From contig CAMCSA010000025.1 in assembly GCA_945877405.1 (NCBI GenBank), positions 1 through 34,015 of the forward strand: a stretch of 34,015 nucleotides of DNA. Reading direction: 5' to 3'. Of this stretch, positions 1,058 to 24,783 are shown in pieces. The position numbers and the translations under genes were made by a program. Origin of the DNA: an uncultured Erysipelotrichaceae bacterium. GTDB lineage: Bacteria > Bacillota_I > Bacilli_A > Erysipelotrichales > Erysipelotrichaceae. Every line of letters begins with the position of its first letter. The first letter of the stretch is position 1. The notes under the pieces are model-generated. The model saw nothing but the letters and a program-made list of their open reading frames with translations, did no database searches and was not told where the DNA came from.

Positions 1058-1069
1058 GGAGGATTGTTT

Positions 1070-1507
1070 ATGTACGAAGTTTATGATCGGGTAAAGGAAA
1101 TCCGTGAAGCAATTCTGGCTGGTGAAATTGCTTTGGATCATTTGAAAGAGGCGAAAGATCATCTGGACAGTGCTTCTACATGGGGAATGTTTGACCTGTT
1201 TGGTGGAAATATCTTCACCGGCATGATGAAACACAGCAGAATCGACGACGCTTCAAAATGTGTGGAACGTGCAAAAAAGGAACTTGCCAGATTCCGTGAT
1301 GAACTGGAAGATATCCAGAATGTGGAAGGTATCCATATTGAAATCGATTCTTTCCTTGTCTTTGCGGATTATCTGTTTGATGGACTGTTTGCGGACCTGT
1401 TTGTACAGTCCAAAATCTCTGATTATCGCAAACAGGTAGAAGCGGCAATGGACCGTGTACAGGATATTCTGTTTGTTCTGAAAAATCAGCTTTCAAAAGC
1501 GCAGTGA
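1070..1507 (+). CDS. Helical protein of unknown function paired with the small membrane protein
   Basis: A 145-residue, mostly helical and charged protein with no membrane segment or signal peptide. Residues about 10-35 and 60-90 look amphipathic or coiled-coil. Between them is a Gly/Trp-rich stretch, STWGMFDLFGG, followed by KHSRIDDA, which looks like a conserved family core. I chose ATG 1070 over the TTG at 1064 because GAGGAGG (1056-1062) sits seven bases before it. A strong terminator directly follows the stop codon. Together with the preceding membrane protein this could be a cytoplasmic partner docking at the membrane. No enzyme motif is visible and I do not recognise a named function. 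Confidence 0.75.
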   Translation: MYEVYDRVKEIREAILAGEIALDHLKEAKDHLDSASTWGMFDLFGGNIFTGMMKHSRIDDASKCVERAKKELARFRDELEDIQNVEGIHIEIDSFLVFADYLFDGLFADLFVQSKISDYRKQVEAAMDRVQDILFVLKNQLSKAQ

Positions 1508-2794: not shown

Positions 2795-4264
2795 ATGAGC
2801 GGAAAATACGATGCCATACAGGAAACGTCATATCTTTCAGCCCCGAGTGCACGTACGTATCGTGCCATCATGAGAAACATGTTCCTTTCACATGAACGTA
2901 TGCATTACAGGCTGTATCGGGAAGAAATATTGAAGCTTCTTCATCGGGATGAAGAATATGTTGATATTACGGATGAACAGCTGAAACTGGATCTGGATCA
3001 GCTTGTTACATGGGGGAATCTGAATGCGGTACAGGATCCAGGTGCTGTACGTACAATTGCAGAATACAAAAACAGGAAATTCCGGTACTTCATGACGGAT
3101 CGGGCAATTGAGATTGAACGCATGACATTGCGTCTGGAAAATCTGTATCTGGAATCCGGTAATCTTTCTTCCAATTACTTTGTGCGTATTGAAAATTCAC
3201 TTTCTCAGATTTCTGCATTAAGGCAGGCTCCTTATGGTGATGTGAATCAGTGGTGGCATGAGTTGCAGGACGATTTTGGCAGGTTGAATCAGAACTATAA
3301 GAATTATCTGAGAGAGTTCTATTCCGCTGATACGGTTACACTCATGAAATCTGTTGATTTCCTTCTTCATAAAGATCAGTTCATGGTTTATCTGCGAGAG
3401 TTCATTTCCCAGATGCAACTGCACGCAAGAAAGATTCAGCGGATGCTGAAACAGTATGGCAGTGATTTTGAAAGCTGGCTGTTGGACAGAATCATTGACA
3501 GTGAACTTGCGATACCGCATCTGAATGAAAAGCAGGTAACAAGAGAAATGCTGAATCAGGGAATTCATGCAGGCTATGATTCTCTTGTCAGCTGGTTTGT
3601 TGCGGAAAACGGCAGAAAACCTGAATACGAAACAATTCTTGAAATCACAAATGACATCATCCGCAGCATTATTGAAAATGCAAGTATGATTGCCAATATG
3701 TCATCCTATGGAATCAGCCGCAAGGATGATTACAGGCATTATATGAAGATGTTTGCGAAATGTGAAACGCTGGATGATGCACATTGTCTGTCTGCTCATG
3801 TGTTCGGTGTCTCCACGATGCAGCACTTTCATCTGCTGCAGATGGATGAGTCGGATTCCTTCAGAACAAGCATGTTCGAAAAGGAACATGATGAAATTGA
3901 ACTGACTTCTTCTTCTCGAACCTATCGGGAAAAACGCTCGAAAGCAGGTTATGCGGACCGCTCTTTTGAAAAACAGATGCAAAGACAGGCATATCTGAAG
4001 CAGGTGGAGCAGCAGACATCCGATCTGATGCGTTTTGTGAAAGACCATCAGCTGAAGATCAGCGAAATCCATGAAGTAATTCCATCGTTTGCCAGAGAAG
4101 TTCTGCTGAGGTGGATCGCAAATGCCAACATGGTGGAAAGCAGATCCGGTATGACAGAATTTGGAAATACCTATCATCTTGGAAAGGAGGAAGGTACATG
4201 TGTGCTGCATTGTGAAGACGGTGATCTGACAATGCCATGTTATGTACTGACATTTGCATCATGA
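2795..4264 (+). CDS. jetA: Wadjet type III subunit JetA (DUF2397/TIGR02677 family)
   Basis: A 489-residue protein resembling the kleisin-like JetA subunit of type III Wadjet (TIGR02677). The N-terminal family signature is LSAPSARTYRAIMRNMF then ERMHYRLYREEI, residues about 14-47, followed by a winged-helix-like region and a long helical middle with charged stretches (about residues 120-440). In Wadjet the kleisin bridges the SMC-like JetC heads and recruits JetB. The start is ATG 2795, preceded by GAGGTAGG. The stop overlaps the jetB start in ATGA, and four jet genes in canonical order follow. Assignment rests on family resemblance plus the unmistakable JetC next to it. It appears full length and intact. 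Confidence 0.9.
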   Translation: MSGKYDAIQETSYLSAPSARTYRAIMRNMFLSHERMHYRLYREEILKLLHRDEEYVDITDEQLKLDLDQLVTWGNLNAVQDPGAVRTIAEYKNRKFRYFMTDRAIEIERMTLRLENLYLESGNLSSNYFVRIENSLSQISALRQAPYGDVNQWWHELQDDFGRLNQNYKNYLREFYSADTVTLMKSVDFLLHKDQFMVYLREFISQMQLHARKIQRMLKQYGSDFESWLLDRIIDSELAIPHLNEKQVTREMLNQGIHAGYDSLVSWFVAENGRKPEYETILEITNDIIRSIIENASMIANMSSYGISRKDDYRHYMKMFAKCETLDDAHCLSAHVFGVSTMQHFHLLQMDESDSFRTSMFEKEHDEIELTSSSRTYREKRSKAGYADRSFEKQMQRQAYLKQVEQQTSDLMRFVKDHQLKISEIHEVIPSFAREVLLRWIANANMVESRSGMTEFGNTYHLGKEEGTCVLHCEDGDLTMPCYVLTFAS

Positions 4265-5397
4265 ACAGTTTACTGACATTAATGGAAAAACAGTGGGTTC
4301 TGCGTGATCTTGACCGACAGCTGTATTATCAGGTGAAATACGAAATCAATGCATACCAGAAATTCATTCAGAATCTTCTCGGATGGCGTCTGATTCATAA
4401 CGAAAACCTGATCCGTCTGGAAAAGACACCATCCCACGCACTGCCTTTTATGGGGATTGGTGTATTTACAGATCGTAGAGATTACTGCATTCTGTGTGCC
4501 GTACTGATGTTTCTTGAGGATCGGGAAGAAGGTAATCAGTTTCTGCTTTCTGAACTGATCCGCTTTGTGGAAACGGTACTGGTTAACGTTATGGATGTGG
4601 ACTGGACTGTATTTTCACAAAGAAGATCGCTTGTCAGAGTCATGCAGTATGCCCAGCAGATGCACATGATCCGTATTTATGAAGGAGATACTGAAACATT
4701 TGCCCGACAGCAGGATACGGAAGTTCTTTATGAAAATACCGGGTGCTCAAGATATTTTGCAGTGCAGTATCCGATCGATGTTACAAAGTTTGATAAATGG
4801 CAGGATTTTGAAGGAAAGATGATGGAAGAGCTGGAAGATGACAGGGGTAACAGAAGAACAAACCGTGTTTATCGTACATTGTGCCTTTCTCCGATTCTTT
4901 TGTGGGAAGATCAGAATGATCCGGATGGCCTGTATGTCAAAAACCAGAGAAAGGCAATCCGTTCCGCACTACAGAAAAACATGGAAGCAGATCTGTACCT
5001 TTCCCGCAATGGGGCATCACTTGTATATACGCAGGATGGGGCAGGAGACATGCATCCACGTCGCAGTATGATCAGCGACATTGTTACACTTGTATCAGAA
5101 AGGATCAGCGAAAGCGCTCTTGATGCAAGAAAAATGAAAATTGATGCGAATGACTGTATTACAGTCAGAAGTACAAGGTTTGATTCGATACTTCTGGATA
5201 TACGGGAACGCTACGAAAAACTGTGGGGTAAGGAATTCAGAACGATGAGTCATGAAAAGTATATCGCATGTATCAGACAGTACATGAAATCATGGATGAT
5301 GATCATCGAAGAGGAAGATCAGGTTATCATCACACCTGCCTGTGTTATGGTGACAGGCAGATATCCAAAGGATCTGGAGGACAGAACAGATGAGTGA
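4261..5397 (+). CDS. jetB: Wadjet type III subunit JetB (DUF2398/TIGR02678 family)
   Basis: A 378-residue protein in the position and size range of the KITE-like JetB subunit of type III Wadjet (TIGR02678). Its N-terminus, MEKQWVLRDLDRQLYYQVK, resembles family members. JetB-type proteins are winged-helix subunits that bind the kleisin and DNA in the JetABC motor. I chose ATG 4261, which overlaps the jetA stop (ATGA), over an upstream in-frame ATG at 4237. No strong ribosome site precedes it, so translation is probably coupled to jetA. Its 3' end overlaps jetC by eight bases. No membrane segments or catalytic motifs are seen, as expected for a structural subunit. Confidence 0.87.
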   Translation: MNSLLTLMEKQWVLRDLDRQLYYQVKYEINAYQKFIQNLLGWRLIHNENLIRLEKTPSHALPFMGIGVFTDRRDYCILCAVLMFLEDREEGNQFLLSELIRFVETVLVNVMDVDWTVFSQRRSLVRVMQYAQQMHMIRIYEGDTETFARQQDTEVLYENTGCSRYFAVQYPIDVTKFDKWQDFEGKMMEELEDDRGNRRTNRVYRTLCLSPILLWEDQNDPDGLYVKNQRKAIRSALQKNMEADLYLSRNGASLVYTQDGAGDMHPRRSMISDIVTLVSERISESALDARKMKIDANDCITVRSTRFDSILLDIRERYEKLWGKEFRTMSHEKYIACIRQYMKSWMMIIEEEDQVIITPACVMVTGRYPKDLEDRTDE

Positions 5398-8300
5398 AAG
5401 ATGGAAGATGAACCGGGTGGGGTTTGTGAATTTCTGGCTTTATGATGATGAATGTTTTGAGCTGGAAGATGGAAAAATGCTGTTAAGGGGTCAGAATGGT
5501 TCCGGTAAATCCATCACAACCCAAAGCTTTATTCCTTTTATTCTGGATGGTGACCGTACTCCGGGAAGACTGGATCCGTTTGGATCTGCAGATCGGAAGA
5601 TGGAATACTATTTCCTGATGGATGGTCAGAAAGAGGAATCGACAGGTTATCTGTATCTGGAGTTCAAAAAGGAAGGTTGTGATGAATATCGCACAATCGG
5701 GATCGGACAGAAAGCACATAAAGGCAGACCAATGGGTTTCTGGGGATTTGTCATTCTTGATCAACGCAGAATCGGCATTGATCTGCAGCTGTATCAGCGC
5801 AGTGGTGACATCCGGATTCCACTTGAAAAAACAGAACTGAAAAAACTGCTTGGTGAACAGAATCCTTTTACCGATGAACAGGGCAAATACAAGGCACTCG
5901 TCAATCAATATATTTTCGGATTTGAAAGAATGGAACAGTACGAACAGTTTCTGAGTCTTCTGATCAAAATCCGTGGATCCAAACTTTCCAATGCATTCAG
6001 ACCGACAAGGATTTATCAGATTCTCAATGACTCTTTGCAGGTATTGTCTGATGAAGATCTGCGCCCGATGGTAGAGGCTATGGAGAGAATGGATGCCATA
6101 CAGGAAAAACTGGAAGGACTGATCCGTTCTCATAATAATGCCAAGGTAATTGCAGGTGAATATGACCGCTATAATCAGTTTATGCTGATCAGAAAGTGGC
6201 AGGCATGTAAGGAAAGTGAAGAAGCTGCTGATGCGGTGGAAAAGAATCTGAACACAATGATCGCAGAAACTGATCAGAAAAAACAGGAAGTACTTGAGAA
6301 AAGAAATGAGATTGCACGTTTGGAAGCAGAACTGAATGCAATCGCAAGACAGATTGAGGAATACCTGGATCCGGAAGTGGAAAACATGGATCAAAGACTG
6401 GTCAATGCGGAAAAGCAGGTACAGACTGTAAACAGCAGGCTGTCTGATAAAAACGGCCAGATTCGCGAAAAGAAAGAACAGCTTCTGATCTGTGAGAGAA
6501 ATGAGGAACAGTACATTTCTGCAAAGGAGTATCAGGAAGGCAAGGCAGATGAGAAAATCAGAGAACTGAATGACCTGAACGAAACACTGCAGATGGATGT
6601 TCATGTAAAGGCTGTTTCTGATTCATACGAGGATGCATCGATTCTTCTGGAAATTGCAGATGTGGAAAAGCAGATCAGTGATACATGTCACCTTCTTCAG
6701 GTGAGTTACAGGAAAAATGAAGAGTGGCACAAGGCACAACAGGAAGAACATGACCATTTCCAGATTGTGTCCGCAAAGACTGCGGTTGTGGAAGAAAAAG
6801 AAGAAAGACGTGATCAGATGAAAGATCAGCTGATTGAGGATCTGCATTCCTTACGTGATAACACATACTGGAGTGTTGAACAGAAGACGATTGAAGATGG
6901 AAAAGAAATCGTGATGAGCTATGAAAGAAGTGCTGACAGTATTCCATTTGATGCTGTTCTTTCATCAGATTATCAGCGTGTACTGCATTCATACAACTAT
7001 CAGCAGATGCAGAAGGAAACACAGCTGCATGGTCTGAACAAGAAGATGGATGTACTTGTGGATGAATATCATCAGCTTGAGGAAGTCAGAGAAGTAGAAC
7101 CTGTCAGGGATGATCGGACGGCTGCTTCCCGTCAAAGACTGATGGAAGTTGGAATACAGGCAATTCCGTTTTATCGTACAGTAAAGTTTGCAGATGGTGT
7201 GGATGAACATCGGCAGGCAGTGATTGAAGCTTCTTTACTGAAAGCCGGACTGCTGGATGCACTTGTTGTCACAAAACAGGATCGCAGGACCATGGAAGAA
7301 AAATGTCCGGATCTTCTGGATGTTACGATTCAGCCAGGAGAAGATCATCATGAGCTGACATTTAAAGAACTGGTTGTTGAAGATGGTCTGAATGAAGCAA
7401 TGGCAACAGAAGTTGCCCGGATTCTTTCCTGCTTTGATCATGAGTTCATTGTGACAGATGATGGCGCTTTTACCCATGGACTTCTTCAGGGACGCAGCGA
7501 TCAGAATGCATCCCTGTATATTGGAGCTACCGCAAGACTGCGTGCACATCAGCTTGCGTTACTTGAAAAACAGAAGCAGATTGATGAACTTGCTGGGGAA
7601 ATCAGAGAAGTAACCGCTGAACTGGACGAAATTGCAGCCATCTGCAAGGGAATGAAGGAAGAATGGGAAAAACGTCCATCTGTAAAGGAACTGGGACAGC
7701 TTTGTGATACGATCTTTGAAGATACGCTGATCTTAAATGGACTGTATGAGCGGCAGAAACAACTGGAAACAGCCTCACTTGCAAAAAAAGCGGAAGCAGA
7801 TCAGTGTCTGCAGAGTGCAAATAAGGCATGTTCCCGTTTCCCATATGAAAGAACTGTTGGAGCGTATGAAGATGTACTTTCTGATCTAAAGCTGTATCAG
7901 CGTTTGTTTACATCCCTTTCAGGATTCAGACGGGAAATGGAAAAATACCAGTCCATGATTGCACAGAATGCAGAAATGAAAGAGCAGGCTGAAAATGACT
8001 GCGATTTCATGATCCGTGAAAAACAGAGTCTTGAAGCAGAACTCTCTTCTCTGCAGGAAACCATTGCGACAATTCAGTCTTATCTGACATCAGATGAAAT
8101 GGTGGAAAAGGTGGAGAAACTACAGTCATTCAGACGCGATCAGAAGGAAAAGGAGAACCTGCTGCATCATGTACAGACACGGGTTTCCATTCTGGAACAT
8201 GACCTGGAAGGTAGTGATGACAGAATTGCACATCTGAGAAAAGAAATGCAGATTCATGATCATGATCGTGCTTTATGCAGGCAGTATATGATGGAAGAAG

Positions 8301-9409
8301 TAGGGCTCAGGCTTGTTTTTGAAGAAGATATTACTTCCGTAAAACAGGCATCCATGAAAATCTCCCAGCTGGATGCATCGCAGTTTAAGGACAGAACACC
8401 AGCAGAAATGGTACAGAAACTGTTTGATGTATATACAAGAAACAACAGTGATATTGTCCAGTATTCCCCATCCTTTGAAACGGTCTTTGCACAGCCTGTG
8501 GAAACAGTTGAAATCAGAAGTGCAGAAAGATCCAGACAGACGGTTGTTGCCTGGTGGCATGGAAAGAAACTTTCCATCAATGATTTTGCGCGGATTGTCA
8601 GTCAGGCAGTAGAAGAAACAAAGGCGCTGATTGAAGAAAAGGATCGTGAACTGTTTGAAAACATTCTTTCTCAGACAGTTGCGCAGAAACTGACTGCAAG
8701 AATTGATGATTCCCGCAAGTGGGTGAAAGATATGTCTGCATTAATGAAAAAGATGAAGACATCGATGGATCTGCACTTCTCCCTTTCCTGGACGCCAATT
8801 GAAAAAGATGAATCCGATGAGCTGAGTATTTCACAGCTGGAAAAGATTCTGAATATGGATCGTGAACTGATCAGCAGTGAAGATGAGATGAAGGCAGCCA
8901 GATATTTCCGCAATCGTATCGCAAAGGAAAAGCAGAAAATGATGGAAAGAAATGAAGCCATCAATTACATGGAGCTTGTTCGTGATGTTCTGGATTATCG
9001 CAGATGGTTTGAATTCAGAATGTCATACTGGCGCAATACAGGTAACCGCAATGAACTGACCAATGCGGCATTCAACAGATTCTCAGGTGGTGAAAAAGCC
9101 ATGGCGATGTACATCCCGCTGTTTGCAGCCCTCAATGCACAGTATCAGAAAGCATCAGATCCATGGCATCCACGTATTCTGGCTCTTGATGAAGCATTTG
9201 CTGGGGTAGATGATACCAATATCGCTTCCATGTTCCAGCTTGTTGAGGAACTTGACTTTGACTATATCATGAATTCACAGATTCTCTGGGGCTGCTTTGA
9301 AACCGTCAGAAAACTGAAGATCTGTGAGCTGTTACGACCATTGAACGCCGATCATGTAACGGTAATCAATTATATATGGGATGGTCACCACAGGAGGCTT
9401 TGTGATTGA
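5390..9409 (+). CDS. jetC: Wadjet type III SMC-like ATPase JetC (TIGR02680 family)
   Basis: A 1339-residue SMC-like ATPase, the motor of Wadjet. In the family it dimerises, extrudes DNA loops on ATP hydrolysis and recognises small circular DNA. Walker A is GQNGSGKS at residues 34-41, followed by the TIGR02680-typical PGRLDPFGSADRKMEYY. Long coiled-coil arms occupy roughly residues 270-560 and 760-1000. An ABC signature, RFSGGEKAMAMY, lies near residue 1230, and Walker B, RILALDEAFAG, near residue 1262. Both nucleotide-binding halves are intact. The start is ATG 5390 with GGAGG upstream, overlapping jetB. The frame is uninterrupted, so the motor is predicted functional despite the damaged jetD behind it. 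Confidence 0.96.
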   Translation: MSERWKMNRVGFVNFWLYDDECFELEDGKMLLRGQNGSGKSITTQSFIPFILDGDRTPGRLDPFGSADRKMEYYFLMDGQKEESTGYLYLEFKKEGCDEYRTIGIGQKAHKGRPMGFWGFVILDQRRIGIDLQLYQRSGDIRIPLEKTELKKLLGEQNPFTDEQGKYKALVNQYIFGFERMEQYEQFLSLLIKIRGSKLSNAFRPTRIYQILNDSLQVLSDEDLRPMVEAMERMDAIQEKLEGLIRSHNNAKVIAGEYDRYNQFMLIRKWQACKESEEAADAVEKNLNTMIAETDQKKQEVLEKRNEIARLEAELNAIARQIEEYLDPEVENMDQRLVNAEKQVQTVNSRLSDKNGQIREKKEQLLICERNEEQYISAKEYQEGKADEKIRELNDLNETLQMDVHVKAVSDSYEDASILLEIADVEKQISDTCHLLQVSYRKNEEWHKAQQEEHDHFQIVSAKTAVVEEKEERRDQMKDQLIEDLHSLRDNTYWSVEQKTIEDGKEIVMSYERSADSIPFDAVLSSDYQRVLHSYNYQQMQKETQLHGLNKKMDVLVDEYHQLEEVREVEPVRDDRTAASRQRLMEVGIQAIPFYRTVKFADGVDEHRQAVIEASLLKAGLLDALVVTKQDRRTMEEKCPDLLDVTIQPGEDHHELTFKELVVEDGLNEAMATEVARILSCFDHEFIVTDDGAFTHGLLQGRSDQNASLYIGATARLRAHQLALLEKQKQIDELAGEIREVTAELDEIAAICKGMKEEWEKRPSVKELGQLCDTIFEDTLILNGLYERQKQLETASLAKKAEADQCLQSANKACSRFPYERTVGAYEDVLSDLKLYQRLFTSLSGFRREMEKYQSMIAQNAEMKEQAENDCDFMIREKQSLEAELSSLQETIATIQSYLTSDEMVEKVEKLQSFRRDQKEKENLLHHVQTRVSILEHDLEGSDDRIAHLRKEMQIHDHDRALCRQYMMEEVGLRLVFEEDITSVKQASMKISQLDASQFKDRTPAEMVQKLFDVYTRNNSDIVQYSPSFETVFAQPVETVEIRSAERSRQTVVAWWHGKKLSINDFARIVSQAVEETKALIEEKDRELFENILSQTVAQKLTARIDDSRKWVKDMSALMKKMKTSMDLHFSLSWTPIEKDESDELSISQLEKILNMDRELISSEDEMKAARYFRNRIAKEKQKMMERNEAINYMELVRDVLDYRRWFEFRMSYWRNTGNRNELTNAAFNRFSGGEKAMAMYIPLFAALNAQYQKASDPWHPRILALDEAFAGVDDTNIASMFQLVEELDFDYIMNSQILWGCFETVRKLKICELLRPLNADHVTVINYIWDGHHRRLCD

Positions 9410-10669
9410 AAACGATTGTGCACAGTATCTGAAAAAGAAAAACCTGCATCTGTTTTTAACAGAAGTCAGGAAAAAATATGAGACCTATGGCAGGTTTACC
9501 GGCAGGATCACGATCACACAGCAGGAATGCAGTGATCTTTCCGGTATCCTTGGTATTTCTGTTACACCAGGGACACCTGTGAGTGTAATCCGTTTTGTTG
9601 AAGCATTGCAGAAAACAAAGTTCGGATGTGTGGATATGAAAAAGCTGCTGGAAGCATATTTTGAAGAACCTGTTGTGACAAAAGAAGAAAGAAGGCAGAA
9701 GCAGCAGGGACAGCAGGAACAGTTCCATACCCGTATCCTTTCTGCGGGAAAGGAACTAGGTGTAGATGAAATACTGATGCACTGGCTGGAAGATATGACT
9801 GAAAACAGAAATGGGGGCTACAGGCTTTTATCTGCATACAGAAATCATGAGGAAGCAATCCTGTTGCCTGTGCTTTATGGACTGCAGCTGGTGCATGATC
9901 AGATGCTTCATGAACCACTTGCGGTAGCGGCTCCCATATTTCCGGTAATCCACATTTTCTGGATCGTGATAGCGATGGTGGCAGGCTGTTTGTTTATGGC
10001 CTGTGTCATCTGTATGATGTGCCTTTTCCTGTAAACTCACTTGAGATGGAACAGCTGTATGCAACTGCAGGTATTACAAAAGATGAAATTGCAGGAAGTG
10101 TTGTCATGTATGGCGTTCCTTTATACCGCAAAGACGGGATTCATCTTGGCGCAAAGGCATGTTATGCATATGGCGAGCCGTTTGTCTGCACAAAATCAGC
10201 TTTGCAGGGACTGGTATCCATTGGGGATCAGAATCAGATCATAGTCATTGTTGAAAATGAAATGGTATTTACCTGGCTGATGAATCATATACCAGACAAT
10301 CATGAAATCGGACTGATCTGTACCTCCGGTCAGTTGAGCACGGTTGCCTGGAATGTACTGTCGTTACTGAAAAAGACTTCCTGCAGGCTGTATTACAGTG
10401 GCGATATGGATCCGGAAGGACTTCTGATCGGGCAGAGTGTAGTGCAGCAGATGGATGGACAGGTTACTTTGTGGCATATGGGAGAACAGGATTATCTGAA
10501 AGCTGTTTCAAAGGAAACAGTGAGTCAAAGGAGAATGGCTCTGCTTGCCAGTATGAAAAATGAACAGCTGACTGCAACCGCGGGCATGATCCGGAAAACC
10601 GGCTTTGCGGCTTATCAGGAAAACATTCTCGATCTGTATCTGAAAGATATTGAAAACTCTTTTCAGTAA
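9402..10669 (+). pseudogene. jetD: Wadjet type III nuclease subunit JetD, frameshifted (TIGR02679 family)
   Basis: JetD is the Toprim-fold nuclease that cuts DNA held by JetABC. Frame one runs from GTG 9402 (AGGAGG at 9392-9397, overlapping the jetC stop) to TAA 10034 and holds the N-terminal DUF3323-like part. Its last ~33 codons become a hydrophobic sequence foreign to the family. The normal continuation (HISGNPHFLDRDSDGGRLFV, then the DUF2399/Toprim-like half with VENEMVF and the YYSGDMDPEG DxD motif) is in another frame, open from 9914 to 10669. The switch point must lie in 9914-10034 and fits loss of one base near 9930-9935. No slippery heptamer is evident there. It is probably a recent inactivating mutation or a sequencing error; internal re-initiation at GTG 10019 or ATG 10046 cannot be excluded. 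Confidence 0.88.
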
Positions 10670-14408: not shown

Positions 14409-14774
14409 ATGAAAGATCGTAATGAAACATTAATTGTGGGGACCATTTTTGGTGAACCACGCTTCAGCCAGACAAAAAATGGCGGAACCTGTGCATCGTT
14501 TACTGTGGCAGTAAAGCGTCCGGATCCAAGTAAGACAAAGGATCTGATCAATGTTACTGCATGGAATGACATGGCAGACAGGCTTGCTTTGGAGTTTGGA
14601 CCGGAGCGCAGGATTCTTGTTCGTGGAAGCATTCATCGGACAAGTTATGTATCCGCAGATGGTTCACGCAGAAACTTCACCAAGATCAATGCGGACATTC
14701 TGGAACATCCGGATGAGGCGGTGGAAGTACCTGTTCAGGAAGAAACGGCACATGAGTATGGGTATTCCGCATGA
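14409..14774 (+). CDS. Short single-stranded DNA-binding (SSB-like) OB-fold protein
   Basis: A 121-residue SSB-family protein. The OB fold spans about residues 5-103, with typical elements: TLIVGTIFGEPRFSQTKNG, ASFTVAVKRP, INVTAWNDMADRLA and ILVRGSIHRTSY. It lacks the glycine/glutamine-rich linker and the acidic DDDIPF-type tail that main SSBs use to recruit repair partners, ending instead in HEYGYSA. This suggests a second, specialised SSB rather than the replicative one, and it is not beside rpsF/rpsR as the main ssb usually is in Bacillota. The start is ATG 14409 after AAGGAGG; the in-frame ATG at 14376 lies in the -10 box. The stop overlaps the following surface-protein gene in ATGA. Confidence 0.85.
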   Translation: MKDRNETLIVGTIFGEPRFSQTKNGGTCASFTVAVKRPDPSKTKDLINVTAWNDMADRLALEFGPERRILVRGSIHRTSYVSADGSRRNFTKINADILEHPDEAVEVPVQEETAHEYGYSA

Positions 14775-17431
14775 AAAGATCATTCCTGCTGAGTCTTGCC
14801 GGCATGGCAGGACTGATGGTACTTCCTCTGCATGGACAGCAGCCGCTGATGAAACTGGAAGAGGAGGTGGAAGGTATCCGGTATGGACTGTATGAAGATG
14901 AAGACTGTCTGATTCCACTTGTGGATGAAGAGGATCATCCTGTTGAAATCATCAGTGATGAAAACGGGATTCTGGCTTTGAATCATCAGATCAGTGATCC
15001 GTATTATCTTCGTCAGAGTGGAACTGTGAGGGGGTATTATTTCGATCCACAGATCTATTCCTCAGGCCAGGATCACTTCATTCTGCCTGTGTATCCGATT
15101 GAAGTGGAAGTTGACTGTGGTGAATGCAGGGAAGGTACATTTCAGATTTATGAGGCACAAAAGGAGGTGATGGTGATGGAATGGAGTCTGGAAGACTGTG
15201 AAAACCCGTCCGTAGAAGAAATCGGTTCTCAGCTGGAAGCCGGGAAGGAATATGTACTTGTACAGAAGGATCTGCCGGAATGGATGTATGGGATGGAACT
15301 TCCCTTTCAGGTTCCCGAATACGCAGAAGAAAAGCTTATCATCAAGGCAGAGCAGATGATGTATGGAAGTCTTTCTTTCCATCTGGAAGGGTTGAAAAAG
15401 GAAAACGGGTTCCGTTATCAGCTGTTTGAGGATGAAGAATGCAGCCGCCCTGCAGAAGACGTGGATGGAAATGAAGTAAAGATGGAAGGGAATGGAACAT
15501 ACCGATACAGCCTGCCGGAAGGTAGTTACTGGCTGAAGGCTGTTAACCAGGATCAGTACTATCTGCCTGTCAATATTCAGACTGTGTCTGTTACCGCAAA
15601 GCAGGAAAAGCAGCTTGTACTTGACCATACATTGATATGCCCTGTCGTGACACTTCTGGATGAAAAGATGCATCCGATCAAAGGAAGCTTTGAGATCAGC
15701 TGTGATGAAGAAGAGGTGATGCATGTTGAATCACAGCACTCACTCAATCTCAGACGGGATCGGATTTATACCATTACACCAGTCAGTGTTCCAGCAGGAT
15801 ATTACTTTCCTTCTGCGGTAACATATGAAACCGTCTATGAAAACGGCATTGTCAGAAATATTGATCTGACTGCTTCCAGCTTTACCGTCGCTCTTTCTTT
15901 AAAAGACCAGCAGACCGATCAGGCAATCGGAGGTGCGGAGTTTGGTATTTATGATGAAGCTGGAAAGATGGTCTGCAGTATCAGAACAGTAAATGGGGAA
16001 GCTGAAATGACAGGTTTAGAGGCTGGGAAGTCATATCGGATTCATCAGACCCGCACAACCGATACATGGCTGCCGGTAAAGGATCAGATTGTTTCAATCC
16101 CTGTTTCTGGAGATCCACTGATCCATGTGGCTTTATATGCGGAAGGATATGTGCACTTGCGTGCATCTATTGTTGATGATGAAGGAAGTGTGATTTCTGA
16201 TGGTGTGATTTCCGTTTTTGATGATCCATTGTGTACGGTTCCATCTGTTGATATTCATGGAAGAAAAATCACCGGTACAGGATTTCTGCAGTCAGATGTA
16301 CAAAATGGTACTTATTACGTGAAACTGGATGGGATCGGTGAAACATGGTATATGAGGGAGGAGGCTGTCAAAGTACAGGCAGATCACTCCTTATCCTCAA
16401 TCGCAGAAGCTTCTGTTGCGACACGTCAGGTTGACTGCAGTATTGTGGTCAAAGATGATCAGGGAAATACAGTAGATGACTTTGTTGTGGACATTTACAA
16501 GGATGGCAAGAAGACAGGAAGGATGAAAGCGGATGGAACAACAGCTCTGAAACAAGGAATTTCATTCAGCAGAAATACGGATTATCTCATTAGACCTGTC
16601 TGTCTGCATGGGCAGTATGTGTTTGATGAAAAGGGAGAAACGATGTCTGTTTCAAAGATGCTTCCGATAGAAATGGAAAGCATGGAAATCAGTGTTACGC
16701 CATATGTCGGACTGCATGTTCTTGACAGCCAGGATGGGTTATCCACAACCTATCAGGTATATACGGATTCTGACTGTACACAACAGGCAACAGATCTGAT
16801 CAGCTCAGAAGACAGTGGAAAGAAAACGTGGAATCTTGCGGATGGCACGTATTGGGTGAAAACCGAATCCATCATTTCATCCTGGTATCCAGACAGTCAC
16901 CCTGTTTCTATTGTTTTGGATCATACGCGAAGCTGGAATGAAAATGTGCTGATGGAACATGCACCGGTTACGGTAGTTCTTTCCAGTATTGATGAAGATG
17001 GTAAGCCACTTTCAGATGCGATGGTGGAAATCCGATCCATGGATGGAGCAGTCCAGCAGACTGGTGCATTCACAGATGGCCTGCTTGTTGTACAGGGATC
17101 CTGGTTATGTAAAGGGGAAAGTTACGTCGTTTCTGAAATCCAGACACCGGATGGATATCACAGGTGTGCAGATGTGCAGTTTACTGTACCATCGAATCAG
17201 CCTTCTGTGCTTCCATCCATCACGATTCCTCATCAGAAAAAACAGGCGATCATCCTTGTTGAACAGGAAAAAACGCCGGTTATGAAACATGAAACACCAC
17301 AGGTACAGGAAACTGTTGAGTCAAAGAAATACTCTTTTTCTACTTCTGTGTTACCAGGTGCTGTTATGATTGGAGGTGTTCTGATCAGTGCATTTGTGAT
17401 TTTGAAAAATATTTCAAAAAGAAAAGTGTAA
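14771..17431 (+). CDS. Large surface protein with SpaA/Cna-B-like repeats and C-terminal membrane anchor
   Basis: An 886-residue predicted surface protein. A signal peptide occupies about residues 1-22 (KRSFLLSLAGMAGLMVLPLHG). Roughly eight beta-rich modules of 80-100 residues follow, each with SpaA/prealbumin-like phrases such as GIRYGLYEDEDC, FRYQLFEDEECS, GAEFGIYDEAGK, TYQVYTDSDC, NGTYYVKLD and DGTYWVKTES. A hydrophobic segment at about 859-878 (VLPGAVMIGGVLISAFVIL) and a basic tail (KNISKRKV) anchor it in the membrane. There is no LPXTG sortase signal. The start overlaps the SSB-like stop (ATGA) without a strong ribosome site, implying translational coupling. Modules of this type occur in pilins and adhesins, but no sortase or pilin genes are nearby, so the role is open. 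Confidence 0.8.
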   Translation: MKRSFLLSLAGMAGLMVLPLHGQQPLMKLEEEVEGIRYGLYEDEDCLIPLVDEEDHPVEIISDENGILALNHQISDPYYLRQSGTVRGYYFDPQIYSSGQDHFILPVYPIEVEVDCGECREGTFQIYEAQKEVMVMEWSLEDCENPSVEEIGSQLEAGKEYVLVQKDLPEWMYGMELPFQVPEYAEEKLIIKAEQMMYGSLSFHLEGLKKENGFRYQLFEDEECSRPAEDVDGNEVKMEGNGTYRYSLPEGSYWLKAVNQDQYYLPVNIQTVSVTAKQEKQLVLDHTLICPVVTLLDEKMHPIKGSFEISCDEEEVMHVESQHSLNLRRDRIYTITPVSVPAGYYFPSAVTYETVYENGIVRNIDLTASSFTVALSLKDQQTDQAIGGAEFGIYDEAGKMVCSIRTVNGEAEMTGLEAGKSYRIHQTRTTDTWLPVKDQIVSIPVSGDPLIHVALYAEGYVHLRASIVDDEGSVISDGVISVFDDPLCTVPSVDIHGRKITGTGFLQSDVQNGTYYVKLDGIGETWYMREEAVKVQADHSLSSIAEASVATRQVDCSIVVKDDQGNTVDDFVVDIYKDGKKTGRMKADGTTALKQGISFSRNTDYLIRPVCLHGQYVFDEKGETMSVSKMLPIEMESMEISVTPYVGLHVLDSQDGLSTTYQVYTDSDCTQQATDLISSEDSGKKTWNLADGTYWVKTESIISSWYPDSHPVSIVLDHTRSWNENVLMEHAPVTVVLSSIDEDGKPLSDAMVEIRSMDGAVQQTGAFTDGLLVVQGSWLCKGESYVVSEIQTPDGYHRCADVQFTVPSNQPSVLPSITIPHQKKQAIILVEQEKTPVMKHETPQVQETVESKKYSFSTSVLPGAVMIGGVLISAFVILKNISKRKV

Positions 17432-17475: not shown

Positions 17476-17740
17476 CAACGTCGATGATGGGAAAAAGTAG
17501 GGCAGTTACCAATTTCAGAGAGCCTTTGGATGCTGAGAAAAAGGTATGCGGTACTGTAGCGAAAACACATCCCTGAGACGATTTCCTGAACATGTACAGT
17601 AAGGAAATACGGGAGTGCCCGTTACAGCACAGAAGTATGACTGTACTTCATGAGGCCTGTCATCGTAAGGTGCAGGTGAAAATCAGGTGGAACCACGTTT
17701 ATTATGGACGTCCCGATTACGGGATGTCCATTTTTGTTAC
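17476..17740 (+). ncRNA. T-box riboswitch leader with histidine (CAC) specifier
   Basis: The leader between the his promoter and hisZ has T-box hallmarks. Stem I starts at GATGGGAAAAAGTAG. A candidate specifier, CAC (17566-17568, in GAAAACACATCCCTGAG), matches histidine. The T-box sequence CAGGTGGAACCACG lies at 17684-17697, and a terminator with T-run follows at 17706-17735. Uncharged tRNA-His would pair with the CAC codon and the T-box bulge, stabilise the antiterminator and allow transcription. The class is very secure; the specifier is assigned by position, not by a folded model. Confidence 0.93.
17706..17735 (+). terminator. Regulated terminator of the his T-box
   Basis: A GC-rich stem (GGACGTCCCG paired with CGGGATGTCC, allowing one G-U pair) with a short ATTA loop is followed by ATTTTT. 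Its 5' side lies just after the T-box sequence, as expected for competition with the antiterminator. Confidence 0.9.
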
Positions 17741-17755
17741 AGGAGGATGAAAAAC

Positions 17756-18865
17756 ATGCAGGAAATCCGTATTCCCCAGGGGATGAGAGATCTGACGGCA
17801 TCACAGAGCCGTCGCAAGGAAGCACTCAGAAAAAGAATAGAGGATGTATTTGAATCATTCGGATATGAAAAGATCTGTACACCGACAATCGAATATGCAA
17901 AGACATATCAGATCGGATTCACATCGTCCACAGATTTTTCTGAAATGTACAGATTTCTGGATCAGGATGGAAAAATGGTCATGATGCGTGTGGATATGAC
18001 CGTACCGATTGCACGTCTTTGTGCAACACGCTATTCCACAGCAAATCCTCCATTCCGTTTTCGTTACTGTTCTGAAGTATTCAAGATCAGACATACATTT
18101 GCCGGAAAACGGTCACAGGTCACCGATTGCGGCATTGAACTGATCGGACTGGATGAAAACAGTGATATTGAAGTTCTGTACACGGCACTCAAAGTACTGC
18201 AGCAGATCGGAACAAAAGAATACCGTCTTGAAATCGGTAATTCCGGTTTCTTCCGTGTTGCTGCAGAAAAACTGAATCTGAGTGAGGAACAGCGGACGAC
18301 ACTGGCAGATCTGATTGATCGCAAATCTCTTGTTGAGCTGCAGGAATATCTTGAAAAAATGGATGTATCCGATGAGATTCAGACTTTCCTTCAGAGCCTT
18401 CCTTTACTTGGTGGAGGCAGTGAAATACTGAATGAGGCAATGGAATCAAGCTTCTGCGAAGAGCTGAAACAGGAAGTCAGAAAACTGATGAAGCTGGATG
18501 AGGATTTAAGAAAGCTTGGTGTCATGGATCACGTCAGCTATGACTTTGGTAAGATTCCACATCTGGATTATTACACGGGAATCATCTTTGAAGGTTATGT
18601 ATCCGGTGTAGGAACATCGGTATTATCCGGAGGCAGATATGACAGCCTTGTCGGAAGATTTGGAAGGGATCTGCCAGCCTGTGGCTTTTCCATCAAACTG
18701 GACGTACTGCTGGATGTACTGGATGAAGTGGAAAAGAAAGTGATTCGGATCGGCTATCCGAAAGGAAAGGAAACGGAAGCACTGATCTATAGTGAAACAT
18801 ATCGGAAGGACAGTTGTGTCGAACTTGTCCCATGGGAAAAACAGCAGATTGAGGTGATCTTATGA
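17756..18865 (+). CDS. hisZ: ATP phosphoribosyltransferase regulatory subunit
   Basis: A 369-residue HisRS-like protein without a full anticodon-binding domain. HisZ binds the short form of HisG and is needed for its activity and feedback by histidine. Visible class II synthetase-like motifs are MRVDMTVPIARL (motif 2 entry), FRFRYCSEVFKIRH, YYTGIIFEGYVSG and LSGGRYDSLVGRFG. I chose ATG 17756, nine bases after AGGAGG (17741-17746); an in-frame ATG at 17747 is too close to that site, and 17687 lies inside the T-box. It is the first gene of a ten-gene operon and overlaps hisG (ATGA). Pairing with a 211-residue HisG supports HisZ over HisRS. Confidence 0.94.
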   Translation: MQEIRIPQGMRDLTASQSRRKEALRKRIEDVFESFGYEKICTPTIEYAKTYQIGFTSSTDFSEMYRFLDQDGKMVMMRVDMTVPIARLCATRYSTANPPFRFRYCSEVFKIRHTFAGKRSQVTDCGIELIGLDENSDIEVLYTALKVLQQIGTKEYRLEIGNSGFFRVAAEKLNLSEEQRTTLADLIDRKSLVELQEYLEKMDVSDEIQTFLQSLPLLGGGSEILNEAMESSFCEELKQEVRKLMKLDEDLRKLGVMDHVSYDFGKIPHLDYYTGIIFEGYVSGVGTSVLSGGRYDSLVGRFGRDLPACGFSIKLDVLLDVLDEVEKKVIRIGYPKGKETEALIYSETYRKDSCVELVPWEKQQIEVIL

Positions 18866-19497
18866 GTCTTGCGGTTGCATTAACAAAAGGAAGACTGGAA
18901 AAGTCCGTTACCGCCATGCTGGAGGAATGCGGCTATGGTGTGGAAAGACTGAAAGATAAAGGCAGAGCCCTTGTCTTTGAAGATACAAAGAAGGATATCC
19001 GTTATTTTCTGGCGAAACCGAATGATGTCATTACCTATGTGGAACATGGTGTTGCGGATATCGGTATTGTCGGTAAGGATACACTTATGGAAGGTGGAAA
19101 GGACTACTATGAACTGCTGGATCTGAAAACAGGGGAATGCAGATTCATTCTGGCAGGATTACCTGGAAATAATCCATTACAGAAAGTAGGTCATATTACG
19201 ATCGGTACAAAGTATCCGAATGTTGCTGGCGAATACTTCCGCACGCATTCGCTGGATCCGGAAATCATCAAGATTGACGGTTCTGTCGAGCTTTCTCCAT
19301 TACTTGGATTATGTGATGGAATCGTGGATATCATGGAAACAGGCACAACACTAAAGGAAAACGGCTTGGTTGTATTTGATGAGGTATGCCGTATCAGTGC
19401 CAGAGCAATTGTCAATAAAGTCAGCTTCAAGATGAAGCGTGAAGAAGTGATGACATTCATCACGGATCTGAAAGAGAAGGTAAATGAGAAATGCTGA
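18862..19497 (+). CDS. hisG: ATP phosphoribosyltransferase, short form catalytic subunit
   Basis: A 211-residue enzyme that joins ATP and PRPP to form phosphoribosyl-ATP, the first step of histidine synthesis. The N-terminus VALTKGRLEKSV and the segment GVADIGIVGKDTLME are typical. The PRPP-binding loop is DIMETGTTLKENGL at about residues 154-167. The length lacks the C-terminal ACT-like regulatory domain of long HisG, so it depends on HisZ encoded just upstream. The start codon overlaps the hisZ stop (ATGA) and the 3' end overlaps hisD by seven bases. Confidence 0.97.
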   Translation: MSLAVALTKGRLEKSVTAMLEECGYGVERLKDKGRALVFEDTKKDIRYFLAKPNDVITYVEHGVADIGIVGKDTLMEGGKDYYELLDLKTGECRFILAGLPGNNPLQKVGHITIGTKYPNVAGEYFRTHSLDPEIIKIDGSVELSPLLGLCDGIVDIMETGTTLKENGLVVFDEVCRISARAIVNKVSFKMKREEVMTFITDLKEKVNEKC

Positions 19498-20780
19498 AGG
19501 AAATATCTGTCAAAGATGAAAAGAAGCTGAGATCCTGGCTGGATGAAAGAAGCCAGGAAATCAATCCGGATGTCGTTGCAAAAGCAGCTGAAATTCTGAA
19601 TCGTGTCAGAAAAGAAGGAGATGCGGCACTCATTGATTATACCCAACGGTTTGATGGTGTTTCCATTCAGAACTTCCGTGTATCGGAAGAAGAACTGGAT
19701 GAAGCAGAAGCAAAGTGTGATGCATCATTCAAGGAGGCTATGCGCCTGGCTGCAGACAATATAGAAACATTCCACAAGGCTCAGCTGCCGCAGTCCTATC
19801 TGTTACAGCAGGATCGTGGTATTTATCTTGGTGAAAGGGTGATTCCTTTATCCAGTGTCGGTATTTATGTTCCAGGAGGCAGAGCACAGTATCCAAGTTC
19901 TGTACTGATGAATGCCATCCCTGCTAAAGTGGCAGGCGTACAGAGGATTGTCATGGTGACTCCACCAAATAAGGAAGGAACAATCAATCCGAATATTGCC
20001 TATGCTGCCCGTCTTGCTGGGGTGAGTGAAATCTATAAAGTCGGTGGTGCACAGGCTGTTGGTGCACTGGCTTATGGTGCCGAGTCCATTCCATCTGTTG
20101 ATAAGATTACCGGCCCTGGCAACATCTTTGTGGCAGCTGCCAAAAAGCTTGTTTATGGAAAAGTGGATATTGATATGATTGCCGGACCATCTGAGATCCT
20201 TGTGATTTCTGATGAAGGAGCGGATCCATCTTTCGTGGCGGCAGATCTGCTTTCTCAGGCAGAGCATGATCCGCTTGCTTCTGCCATTCTTCTGACAACT
20301 TCACGCACATTACTGGAAAAAGTCAATGAAGAGCTGGAAAGACAATGCGCATTACTTCCGAAAAAGGAAATTGCGCAGGCTGCCATCCGGGACTATGGAC
20401 GTTCGATCGTCTGTGACTCCATCAGTGAATGCATTGATTTTGCCAATGCGATTGCTCCGGAACATCTGGAGTTGTGTATCGCAGATCCGATGGCGTATCT
20501 GTCACAGGTTAAAAATGCGGGTTCCGTATTCCTTGGCTACTATACATGTGAATCCATCGGGGATTACTTTGGTGGTACAAACCATGTACTGCCGACAAAC
20601 GGTACGGCAAGATTCTCCAGCGCACTTGGTGTGGATGCATTTGTGAAGAAGTCTTGTTTCCTGCATTACAGTAAGGAAGCCGTATATCAGTATGGTCACT
20701 ATATCGAGACAATGGCGAAAGAAGAACAGCTGCAGGCCCATGCCAATGCAGTAACAGTGAGGTTGCAGAATGGAAAATAA
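19491..20780 (+). CDS. hisD: Histidinol dehydrogenase
   Basis: A 429-residue zinc enzyme that performs the last two steps, oxidising histidinol through histidinal to histidine with two NAD. Signature segments are VGIYVPGGRAQYPSSV, the zinc-site LSQAEHDPLASA (Gln and His), the catalytic Glu-His pair in IAPEHLEL, the Asp in GDYFGGTNHVLPT and the C-terminal zinc His in QAHANAV. The length matches the family (about 430). It starts inside the hisG 3' end and overlaps hisC by 11 bases, so it is tightly coupled. Confidence 0.98.
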   Translation: MLKEISVKDEKKLRSWLDERSQEINPDVVAKAAEILNRVRKEGDAALIDYTQRFDGVSIQNFRVSEEELDEAEAKCDASFKEAMRLAADNIETFHKAQLPQSYLLQQDRGIYLGERVIPLSSVGIYVPGGRAQYPSSVLMNAIPAKVAGVQRIVMVTPPNKEGTINPNIAYAARLAGVSEIYKVGGAQAVGALAYGAESIPSVDKITGPGNIFVAAAKKLVYGKVDIDMIAGPSEILVISDEGADPSFVAADLLSQAEHDPLASAILLTTSRTLLEKVNEELERQCALLPKKEIAQAAIRDYGRSIVCDSISECIDFANAIAPEHLELCIADPMAYLSQVKNAGSVFLGYYTCESIGDYFGGTNHVLPTNGTARFSSALGVDAFVKKSCFLHYSKEAVYQYGHYIETMAKEEQLQAHANAVTVRLQNGK

Positions 20781-21801
20781 GGTTACATACCAGGCAAGAC
20801 AGTCTGGAAAAATCATGCTCAATGCAAATGAATCCGGTGAGAACCTGACTGCACAGATGATGGACAGGGTGGTGGAAGCCATCCGCAATACAGCCTTCAA
20901 CCGTTATCCGGAGAATTCACAGGTAAAACTGCGGGAAGCCTATGCTTCTGTGATCGGTGTAAATGCAGATCAGATCATTGCAGGCAACGGATCGGACCAG
21001 CTGCTTGGATATCTGATCGGAAAACTGGCTGGTGTGGATGGAACAGTATATACCTTTGACCCGGATTTTTCCATGTACGATTACTATACTTCTTCCTATG
21101 GATCACAGATCATCAAGTATCCATGTGATGAAGATGGAAGCCTGGATCTTGATTCCTTTATCCGTTATGGAAACGATCAGAATGCAGATCTGGTGATCTT
21201 TTCCAATCCGAACAATCCATCCGGTCATTGCCTGTCCATTGAAGAGGTGGAAAAGGTGATTCAGGGATTTGATGGAACACCGGTCATTGTGGATGAAGCC
21301 TACATTGAATTTGCTGATGAAGCGAGTGCAATATCCTTGCTTGATCAGTATCCGCAGCTGTATGTGACCAGAACTCTTTCCAAAGCATATGGGCTTGCAG
21401 GAATGAGAGTCGGATTTGCGATCGGGCAGAAGCAGAACATGGATGCCTTAAGGGAAGGATATGTGCCATATGCACTGTCCACCCCGGCAATGGAAATTGC
21501 ATGTGCCATTCTTTCTGATCCAGGTGCAGTACAGAACAGGATCTGTGAAATCAAAGCACAAAGACAGAAGATGCTTGAAATCATGAAGCAGATGAAATGT
21601 CTGACGGTTTATGATTCACAGGCAAATTTCATTTATGGTCGTACAGAAGAAAGGGACCGTTTATGTGCCATTCTCGATGAGGAAGGCATTGTCATACGTC
21701 TGTATGGAGATGGCAGTACATTCCGTATTACCGTATCCACACAACAGGAAAACAGTCTTCTGCTGCAGGCATTACAGAGATTTGAAGGAGAAGGACAATG
21801 A
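20770..21801 (+). CDS. hisC: Histidinol-phosphate aminotransferase
   Basis: A 343-residue PLP-dependent class I/II aminotransferase converting imidazole-acetol phosphate and glutamate to histidinol phosphate. Recognised segments are NANESGENL near the N-terminus, NRYPENSQVKLREAYA, GNGSDQLLGYLIG, SNPNNPSGHCLS, VIVDEAYIEFADEA and the lysine motif TRTLSKAYGLAGMRVGFAIG. HisC-type enzymes can also act on aromatic substrates, but the his operon position settles the role. It overlaps hisD upstream and hisB downstream (ATGA). Confidence 0.97.
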   Translation: MENKVTYQARQSGKIMLNANESGENLTAQMMDRVVEAIRNTAFNRYPENSQVKLREAYASVIGVNADQIIAGNGSDQLLGYLIGKLAGVDGTVYTFDPDFSMYDYYTSSYGSQIIKYPCDEDGSLDLDSFIRYGNDQNADLVIFSNPNNPSGHCLSIEEVEKVIQGFDGTPVIVDEAYIEFADEASAISLLDQYPQLYVTRTLSKAYGLAGMRVGFAIGQKQNMDALREGYVPYALSTPAMEIACAILSDPGAVQNRICEIKAQRQKMLEIMKQMKCLTVYDSQANFIYGRTEERDRLCAILDEEGIVIRLYGDGSTFRITVSTQQENSLLLQALQRFEGEGQ

Positions 21802-22379
21802 GAGAGGCATCTTTATCAAGAACAACGAAAGAAACAGATGTTTCTGTAACATGGAATCTGGATGGAACAGGCAAAGCATCCATTGATACCGGAATCGGTT
21901 TTTTCAATCACATGCTGGAACTGCTTGCCTTTCATTCTGGCACGGATCTGACAATCAGGGCTGCTGGTGATATTGATGTGGATGATCATCATACCATTGA
22001 GGATATCGGAATTGTGATGGGCACGGTTTTCAGACAGGCATTAGGAGAGAGAATCGGTATCGCAAGATATGGTTTTTTCCTGTTGCCGATGGATGAAGTG
22101 CTTGCCGAAACTGCCATGGACATATCCGGGCGTCCTTATCTTGTGTTCAACTGTGATTTCAATCGTGAAAATGTCGGTGCCATGGCAACGGAAATGGCAG
22201 AAGAATTCTTCCGGGCATTTGCGGTTGCGGCAGGTGTGAGCTTGCATATCAACGTCCGCTATGGAACAAATGATCATCATAAAATGGAAGGCATCTTCAA
22301 ATCCTTTGCTCATACAATCAAGGCGGCAGTCAAGGTGGAAGGTGATCAGCTGCCATCCACGAAAGGAATGCTGGAATGA
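21798..22379 (+). CDS. hisB: Imidazoleglycerol-phosphate dehydratase
   Basis: A 193-residue single-function dehydratase that converts imidazoleglycerol phosphate to imidazole-acetol phosphate; there is no fused histidinol-phosphatase domain. The manganese-binding repeats are visible as DDHHTIEDIG and NDHHKMEGIFKSFAHTIK. The N-terminal motif reads TGIGFFNHMLELLAFH, with Asn where many homologues have Asp (FFDHML); the metal-binding His is retained. The gene overlaps hisC and hisH by four bases each. Confidence 0.97.
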   Translation: MREASLSRTTKETDVSVTWNLDGTGKASIDTGIGFFNHMLELLAFHSGTDLTIRAAGDIDVDDHHTIEDIGIVMGTVFRQALGERIGIARYGFFLLPMDEVLAETAMDISGRPYLVFNCDFNRENVGAMATEMAEEFFRAFAVAAGVSLHINVRYGTNDHHKMEGIFKSFAHTIKAAVKVEGDQLPSTKGMLE

Positions 22380-22984
22380 TCGGAATTATTGACTATGGAA
22401 TGGGCAATCTGCGCTCTGTAGAAAATGCCTTAAAAAAACTGGGAAAGGAATCTTTGATCAGTGGGGATCCGAATGTTCTTTCGTGTTGTGAAAAACTGAT
22501 CCTGCCAGGAGTCGGTGCTTTTCCTGACTGCATGGCGAATATCCACCAAAGAGGTCTGTTTGAACCGATCAGGCAAATGGTAAGCAATGGTACGCCATTA
22601 CTTGGCATATGCCTTGGCATGCAGATGCTGTATGAGACAAGTGAGGAAATGGAACTGACAAATGGATTCGGTTTCCTCAAAGGTACGGTAAAGAAGATGG
22701 AAACGGATCTTCCAATACCACAGATCGGATGGAACGAGCTTGTCTTTGATGGAAATCATCCTGTAAAGGAAGTGCTTTCCGATCATCCATATGTATACTA
22801 TGTTCATTCCTATTGTGCTGATGCGTATGAAGAAGCACAGCTGTATGGTTATTCGATGTATGGAGATATCCGTGTACCTGGACTTGTTGGAAAAGACAAT
22901 GTTCTTGGCGCACAGTTTCATCCGGAAAAAAGCGGCAGGGAAGGACTTGCCATACTGAAATACTTTGTGGAGGAATTTGTATGA
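22376..22984 (+). CDS. hisH: Imidazole glycerol phosphate synthase, glutaminase subunit
   Basis: A 202-residue class I glutamine amidotransferase that hydrolyses glutamine and channels ammonia to HisF. The catalytic triad is seen as Cys in LLGICLGMQML and His and Glu in QFHPEKSG. The oxyanion strand is LPGVGAF near residue 43. The N-terminus IGIIDYGMGNLRSVENAL is diagnostic. It is four-base coupled to hisB and hisA; its partner HisF is encoded two genes downstream. Confidence 0.98.
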   Translation: MIGIIDYGMGNLRSVENALKKLGKESLISGDPNVLSCCEKLILPGVGAFPDCMANIHQRGLFEPIRQMVSNGTPLLGICLGMQMLYETSEEMELTNGFGFLKGTVKKMETDLPIPQIGWNELVFDGNHPVKEVLSDHPYVYYVHSYCADAYEEAQLYGYSMYGDIRVPGLVGKDNVLGAQFHPEKSGREGLAILKYFVEEFV

Positions 22985-23709
22985 TTATTCTGCCGGCAAT
23001 TGATATGATGGGTGGACTTCCTGTCCGCCTGTACCAGGGAGCATATGAATCAGCTGCACAGGTTGCAGATGACGTATTGAAAACGGCACTTTCTTTTGAA
23101 AAGGCCGGTGCGGAATGGATTCATATGGTGGATCTGGACGGTGCGAAAACCGGCAAAAAGGAAAATGCGCAGAAGATTGTTGAAGTAGCACAGAATGTCC
23201 GTATTCCGATTGAAGTCGGTGGTGGGATCAGATCCATGGAAGATATTGAATGGTATCTGGATCATGGTGTCGCCCGTGTCATTCTCGGCACTGCGGCAAT
23301 AGAAAACAAAGAGCTTCTCAAAGAAGCTGTTGCGAAATACGGTGAGAAGATTGCGGTAGGAATTGACTGTAAAAACGGCATTCCATGTGCACGCGGATGG
23401 CTGACTTCTTCTTCCTGCAACTATGTTGATTTTGCAAAGGAGCTGGAGCAGATTGGTGTTTCTGTGATTATCGTTACCGATATCGCAAAGGATGGTACCC
23501 TGCAGGGGCCGAATCTTGAGATGCTGAAGACATTACAGGAAAATGTATCCATGAAGATCATCGCAAGCGGTGGTGTAGCAGATCTTTCCCATATAGAAGC
23601 TCTTGCTGGAATGAATCTCTATGGAGCAATCACAGGAAAAGCTGTTTACAGTGGAACGCTGGATCTGAAACAGGCAATTGCCTGTGGAAAGGAGTGCCAT
23701 GCTGAGTAA
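22981..23709 (+). CDS. hisA: ProFAR isomerase
   Basis: A 242-residue TIM-barrel isomerase converting ProFAR to PRFAR. The catalytic Asp lies in [17 protein letters not shown] and the second in [14 protein letters not shown]. The phosphate-binding loops are [12 protein letters not shown] and [10 protein letters not shown]. The fold and length are standard. It overlaps hisH (ATGA) and runs past the hisF start by 11 bases. Confidence 0.97.
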
Positions 23710-24460: not shown

Positions 24461-24783
24461 TCAAAGTGGATTTTGAAAAAGGCAACGGCCTTGTACCTGC
24501 CATTGTGCAGGATGCCATCAGTGGTGAAGTGCTGATGCTTGGCTATATGAATGAAGAAAGTCTTCAGAAAACACTTGAAACTGGACTTGCGACATACTGG
24601 TCACGCAGCAGAAATGAATTATGGACAAAAGGAGAAACGTCAGGTCATTACCAGCATGTACAGGAAATCCGGATTGACTGTGATGAAGATACACTGTTAG
24701 TGAAGGTCATACAGGATGGATCTGCATGTCATACAGGAAACAGAAGCTGTTTCTATCGACTACTGGAGGATAACAATGAGTGA
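24457..24783 (+). CDS. hisI: Phosphoribosyl-AMP cyclohydrolase
   Basis: A 108-residue zinc/magnesium-dependent enzyme opening the adenine ring of phosphoribosyl-AMP. The metal-site segment [20 protein letters not shown] and the following [10 protein letters not shown], with its conserved cysteines, are diagnostic, as are [11 protein letters not shown] and [18 protein letters not shown]. It is a stand-alone cyclohydrolase, not fused to HisE, which is encoded separately and overlaps by eight bases. It is coupled to hisF (ATGA). Confidence 0.97.

What the first reader, a model, noticed from the sequence alone, without database searches (positions are those of the whole stretch)
9914..10034. jetD is split by a one-base frameshift before its Toprim nuclease half
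Frame one ends in about 33 codons of non-family hydrophobic sequence, while the expected family text (HISGNPHFLDRDSDGG...) begins in another frame near 9935 and runs on to the catalytic VENEMVF and GDMDPEG motifs. Loss of a single base near 9930-9935 explains this. No slippery heptamer is seen. If real, the cell keeps a loop-extruding JetABC without a full nuclease, which could disarm plasmid defence or leave a different activity.
Basis: seen in the sequence. Interest (0 to 1): 0.65.

Follow-up and report, generated by a model that had tools for sequence, protein, structure and literature searches.

The report
Frameshifted nuclease gene in Wadjet operon
A bacterial anti-plasmid defence operon (Wadjet type II) looks intact except that its DNA-cutting gene, jetD, is one base short in the middle; this is most likely a recent knock-out mutation or an assembly error, and it is an ordinary kind of gene damage.

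Summary
The window is a whole 34,015-base contig and carries a type II Wadjet operon, jetA-jetB-jetC-jetD. jetA, jetB and jetC are complete. jetD is in two frames. Family text runs in frame 0 to PLAV (ends 9926) and resumes in the -1 frame at ISGNPH (from 9938). Relatives have 12 bases (four residues) between these motifs; here there are 11. A codon-statistics test that uses no relatives puts the switch at 9933. All 22 distinct JetD homologues aligned have the junction in one frame, so the split is not conserved. The overlap has no slippery heptamer, and the C-terminal half has no start with a ribosome site. The cut lies inside the CAP domain, before the Toprim domain. The C-terminal half keeps all 16 near-invariant residues, so the lesion is recent, or an assembly error, or that half is still under selection. 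In 434 kb of this genome jetD is the only strong frameshift found, so the assembly is not broadly indel-ridden, but one error is not excluded. Most likely: recent loss of the Wadjet nuclease with JetABC kept (about 0.55) or an assembly error (about 0.4). Frameshifted Wadjet genes are already documented. Low interest.

The parts
2795..4264 (+). jetA (type II; DUF2397), 489 aa, intact
   Evidence: PADLOC PDLC00540 1.4e-160, Pfam PF09660 4.1e-124
4237..5397 (+). jetB (type II; DUF2398), 386 aa, intact
   Evidence: PDLC00542 3.3e-123, PF09661 3.4e-87
5390..9409 (+). jetC (type II; MukB/SMC-like), 1339 aa, intact: Walker A GQNGSGKS at residue 34, FSGGE signature at 1231, ILALDEAF Walker B
   Evidence: PDLC00550 E=0 over positions 1-1352 of 1355; PF13558 5.5e-25; motifs and ORF text
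9381..10034 (+). jetD N-terminal ORF (217 aa): family sequence to about 9926-9933, then 33 codons of out-of-frame hydrophobic tail
   Evidence: PDLC00556 positions 5-158, PF11796; alignment
9927..9937 (+). junction: 11 bases where relatives have 12; frame 0 family text ends upstream, the -1 frame begins downstream
   Evidence: alignment; best coding-frame switch 9933
9938..10669 (+). jetD C-terminal half in the other frame (rest of CAP, then Toprim: VENEMVF, GDMDPEG); no stop inside; first ATG/GTG/TTG is GTG 10019
   Evidence: PDLC00556 positions 189-426 1.9e-70, PF09664 1.7e-25; starts

Best explanation
An otherwise complete type II Wadjet operon whose nuclease gene jetD has recently lost one base in codons for the CAP domain. 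Translation gives a truncated N-terminal arm with part of the CAP domain and a 33-residue out-of-frame tail. The Toprim catalytic half is not joined to it and has no good start of its own. JetABC should still be made but cannot cut plasmids, so plasmid defence is lost. Shown: the gene split, its position, intact jetABC, and intact homologues elsewhere. Inferred: that the base is missing in the cell, and the loss of function.
For: Both halves match one JetD2 profile in register. The interval is one base short against all aligned relatives. An independent dicodon switch falls at 9933. All 22 distinct homologues aligned are unsplit at the junction. In the family set 11 of 11 other complete jetC2 genes are followed directly by an unsplit jetD. 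A single strong frameshift turned up in 434 kb of this genome, with 65% recall of simulated deletions at D>12, which argues against a generally indel-ridden assembly. jetC is intact. All four Jet subunits are needed for plasmid suppression (PMC10586767), and Mg-site alanine mutants of the JetD homologue MksG are drastically impaired (PMC10123090).
Against: No reads and no second strain of the species are available, so an assembly error is not excluded. The C-terminal half keeps all 16 near-invariant residues and has no stop, which an old pseudogene would not; the event must then be recent (neutral divergence below about 8%), or be an artefact.
Confidence: 0.55

Rival explanations
1. Sequencing or assembly error: the real jetD is one frame and the Wadjet system is complete.
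For: The C-terminal half shows no decay: 16 of 16 near-invariant residues and no stops. The genome is a draft of 86 contigs. Spurious pseudogenes are common in public assemblies; at 10-fold coverage or less at least one per Mb is expected (PMC11017572).
Against: The junction interval has no homopolymer longer than three bases. The rest of the 434 kb sample shows no comparable frameshift, so the overall error rate is low. jetD is about 10 kb from the nearer contig end.
Confidence: 0.4
2. Recoding: a programmed -1 frameshift or transcriptional slippage makes full-length JetD.
For: The shift is in the -1 sense, both frames overlap over 121 bases, and the C-terminal half looks conserved.
Against: No slippery heptamer and no long A/T run near the junction. 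Homologues encode this junction in a single frame, so recoding would be unique to this species.
Confidence: 0.03
3. Functional split: the two halves are separate proteins, the C-terminal one started at GTG 10019 by reinitiation near the upstream stop at 10034, and the N-terminal one gains a membrane-like tail.
For: The ORFs overlap by 16 bases. The tail is unusually hydrophobic: GRAVY 2.54 against a mean of 1.13 in synonymous randomisation, P about 6e-4.
Against: No Shine-Dalgarno upstream of GTG 10019. The coding signal in the second frame begins at 9933, about 86 bases before that start. Starting there drops part of the CAP domain. The same shifted frame is neither consistently open nor comparably hydrophobic in relatives. 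The tail test was made after seeing the tail, and the segment is rich in T at third positions (20 of 33 against 32% gene-wide).
Confidence: 0.02

Closest known systems
Wadjet type II (JetABCD)
   Same: Gene order, all four families in sequence, JetC ATPase motifs, JetD Toprim acidic motifs
   Different: jetD is in two frames; aligned relatives have it in one
Frameshifted Wadjet genes as shown by PADLOC (jetC frameshift example, PMC9252829) and Wadjet pseudogenes in Xylella fastidiosa (jetA, jetC; PMC9148166)
   Same: A single Wadjet gene inactivated or mis-assembled in an otherwise complete operon
   Different: Here the nuclease gene jetD is hit, in a type II system
MksBEF of Pseudomonas aeruginosa
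   Different: No evidence here of a chromosome role; jetD sequence is still largely present, not deleted

Membership tests
Wadjet type II | JetA, JetB and JetC of type II, adjacent and in order | tested here: met
Wadjet type II | JetD with N-terminal arm/CAP and C-terminal Toprim in one protein | tested here: not met
   Both parts are present in the DNA but in two frames
Wadjet type II | Plasmid restriction | not testable with these tools
   Needs a transformation or conjugation assay
Topoisomerase VI A-like CAP-Toprim fold (JetD/MksG) | Fold match of the intact homologue L010 JetD | tested here: met
   Model mean pLDDT 91.5, pTM 0.54. VIA Z 16.3 to 1d3y (249 aligned, rmsd 6.0), 15.3 to MksG 8b7f (272, 8.1), 13.3 to JetD 7til (271, 13.3)
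Pseudogene by frameshift | Interrupted frame relative to single-frame homologues | tested here: met
Pseudogene by frameshift | Lesion present in the cell's DNA, not only in the assembly | not testable with these tools
   No reads and no same-species strain held
Programmed -1 frameshift gene | Slippery heptamer at the junction and conservation across relatives | tested here: not met
Phase-variable gene | Long homopolymer or short tandem repeat at the switch | tested here: not met
   Longest run in 9927-9937 is three bases

The most novel reading that the evidence does not exclude
The lineage keeps a working JetABC loop extruder with a deliberately uncoupled JetD (a membrane-tailed N-terminal half plus a separate or recoded Toprim half), an early step towards a nuclease-free MksBEF-like condensin or a regulated defence switch.
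Probability: 0.03. Interest if true: 0.55.

Novelty: new member of a known kind. Interest (0 to 1): 0.15.

Why it matters
If the base is really missing, the strain should be open to small circular plasmids despite carrying a Wadjet operon. Such loss of the nuclease with the motor kept is the step proposed for the origin of MksBEF condensins. It also warns that annotation tools that need all four Jet proteins would miss or miscall this system.

Tried and rejected
Programmed frameshift: no heptamer, not conserved. A second intact jetD in the genome: a search of the own genome finds only these two pieces. A genome full of indels: a dicodon scan of 434 kb gave one strong case (jetD, D=27.4) and two weak ones (D 13.0 and 12.4) with tails of 18 and 24 bases that I take to be ordinary gene overlaps. 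Same sequence elsewhere: no near match in plasmids, and no exact junction match in viral contigs. Solved structures by sequence: no hit with A1, so the fold route was used. A second family genome, G092, that seemed to have jetC without jetD is cut at contig ends.

Full report
What is there. The window is a complete contig (G000:C25, 34,015 bases) of an 86-contig, 2.125 Mb draft genome, 95.6% complete. Bases 2795-10669 carry a type II Wadjet operon: jetA 2795-4264, jetB 4237-5397, jetC 5390-9409, jetD from about 9408. jetC matches its profile over 1-1352 of 1355 positions and has Walker A, signature and Walker B motifs.

The split. Frame 0 (ORF 9381-10034) matches JetD2 profile positions 5-158. 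The frame one base back, open from 9914 to 10669, matches positions 187/189-426. In relatives the text at the junction is PLAV + four residues + ISGNPH/ITGNPH. Here PLAV ends at 9926 and ISGNPH begins at 9938, so 11 bases stand where 12 are expected. A dicodon model trained on 21 stretches of the same genome, with no use of relatives, gives the best switch from frame 0 to the other frame at 9933.

Where it cuts. An intact homologue (L010 JetD, 430 aa) was modelled with mean pLDDT 91.5 and pTM 0.54. Residues 156-430 match the CAP-Toprim core of topoisomerase VI A, Spo11, MksG and JetD (VIA Z 13-16). The junction corresponds to residues 186-189, in a helix of the CAP domain. The catalytic VENEMVF and GDMDPEG motifs lie downstream, in the other frame.

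Is it conserved? No. The 22 distinct homologues aligned all have the junction in one frame. In 272 genomes of the family, 12 have a jetC2 gene complete on its contig. The 11 others are each followed at once by an unsplit jetD; only this one is split. One further genome, G092, has both genes cut by contig ends. The system itself is patchy: 4 of 70 genomes of the genus have this JetD.

How old? Of 16 columns that are at least 95% invariant in relatives of the C-terminal half, the window keeps 16, with no stop codon. If that half had been free to drift, neutral divergence since the event would be below about 8% (rough bound). So the event is recent, or an artefact, or the half is still used.

Artefact or real? 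A scan for coding-frame switches in 434 kb of this genome (355 coding-like ORFs) gave jetD as the only strong case, D=27.4. Simulated single-base deletions are recovered at D>12 in 65% of trials. One event in 434 kb fits either a true mutation or the occasional assembly error: one spurious pseudogene or more per Mb is expected at 10-fold coverage or less (PMC11017572). No reads or sister strains are held, so this stays open.

Expression of the pieces. There is no slippery heptamer in the overlap of the frames. The first usable start in the second frame is GTG 10019, with no Shine-Dalgarno-like sequence. The coding signal in that frame starts about 86 bases earlier, which fits a broken gene better than a native second gene.

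The hydrophobic tail. The 33-codon tail has GRAVY 2.48 and no equal among 4,106 same-sense shifted stretches of other genes. Given the protein text it replaces, synonymous randomisation already predicts a hydrophobic tail (mean 1.13), with the observed value at P about 6e-4. The stretch is rich in T at third positions: 20 of 33 against 32% gene-wide. Relatives do not show a conserved tail in that frame. I regard it as chance plus local base composition, seen after the fact.

Function. All four Jet subunits are needed for plasmid suppression (PMC10586767), and changing the Mg-binding residues of the homologue MksG drastically impairs cutting (PMC10123090). If the lesion is real, JetABC is probably left without its nuclease. 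The same review proposes that MksBEF arose by loss of JetD, which gives one path by which JetABC could be kept; nothing here shows that it has a new role.

Novelty. Frameshifted or pseudogenised Wadjet genes are on record: jetC in the PADLOC paper (PMC9252829), jetA and jetC in Xylella (PMC9148166). This is another case, in jetD of a type II system. The base that would rejoin the frames is not named here.

Noticed in passing
window 9933-10031: The out-of-frame tail of the truncated JetD would be an almost perfect hydrophobic segment (GRAVY 2.48), more hydrophobic than any of 4,106 comparable shifted stretches.
   Followed up: partly
window 1064-1507: 147-aa ORF upstream of the operon with no Pfam match.
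   Followed up: no
window 14771-17431: 886-aa protein with SpaA-type prealbumin-like domains between a single-strand-binding-like protein and the histidine genes; looks like a surface protein.
   Followed up: no
window 17687-25099: Complete-looking histidine biosynthesis cluster starting with a HisZ-like histidyl-tRNA-synthetase paralogue, all frames intact.
   Followed up: no
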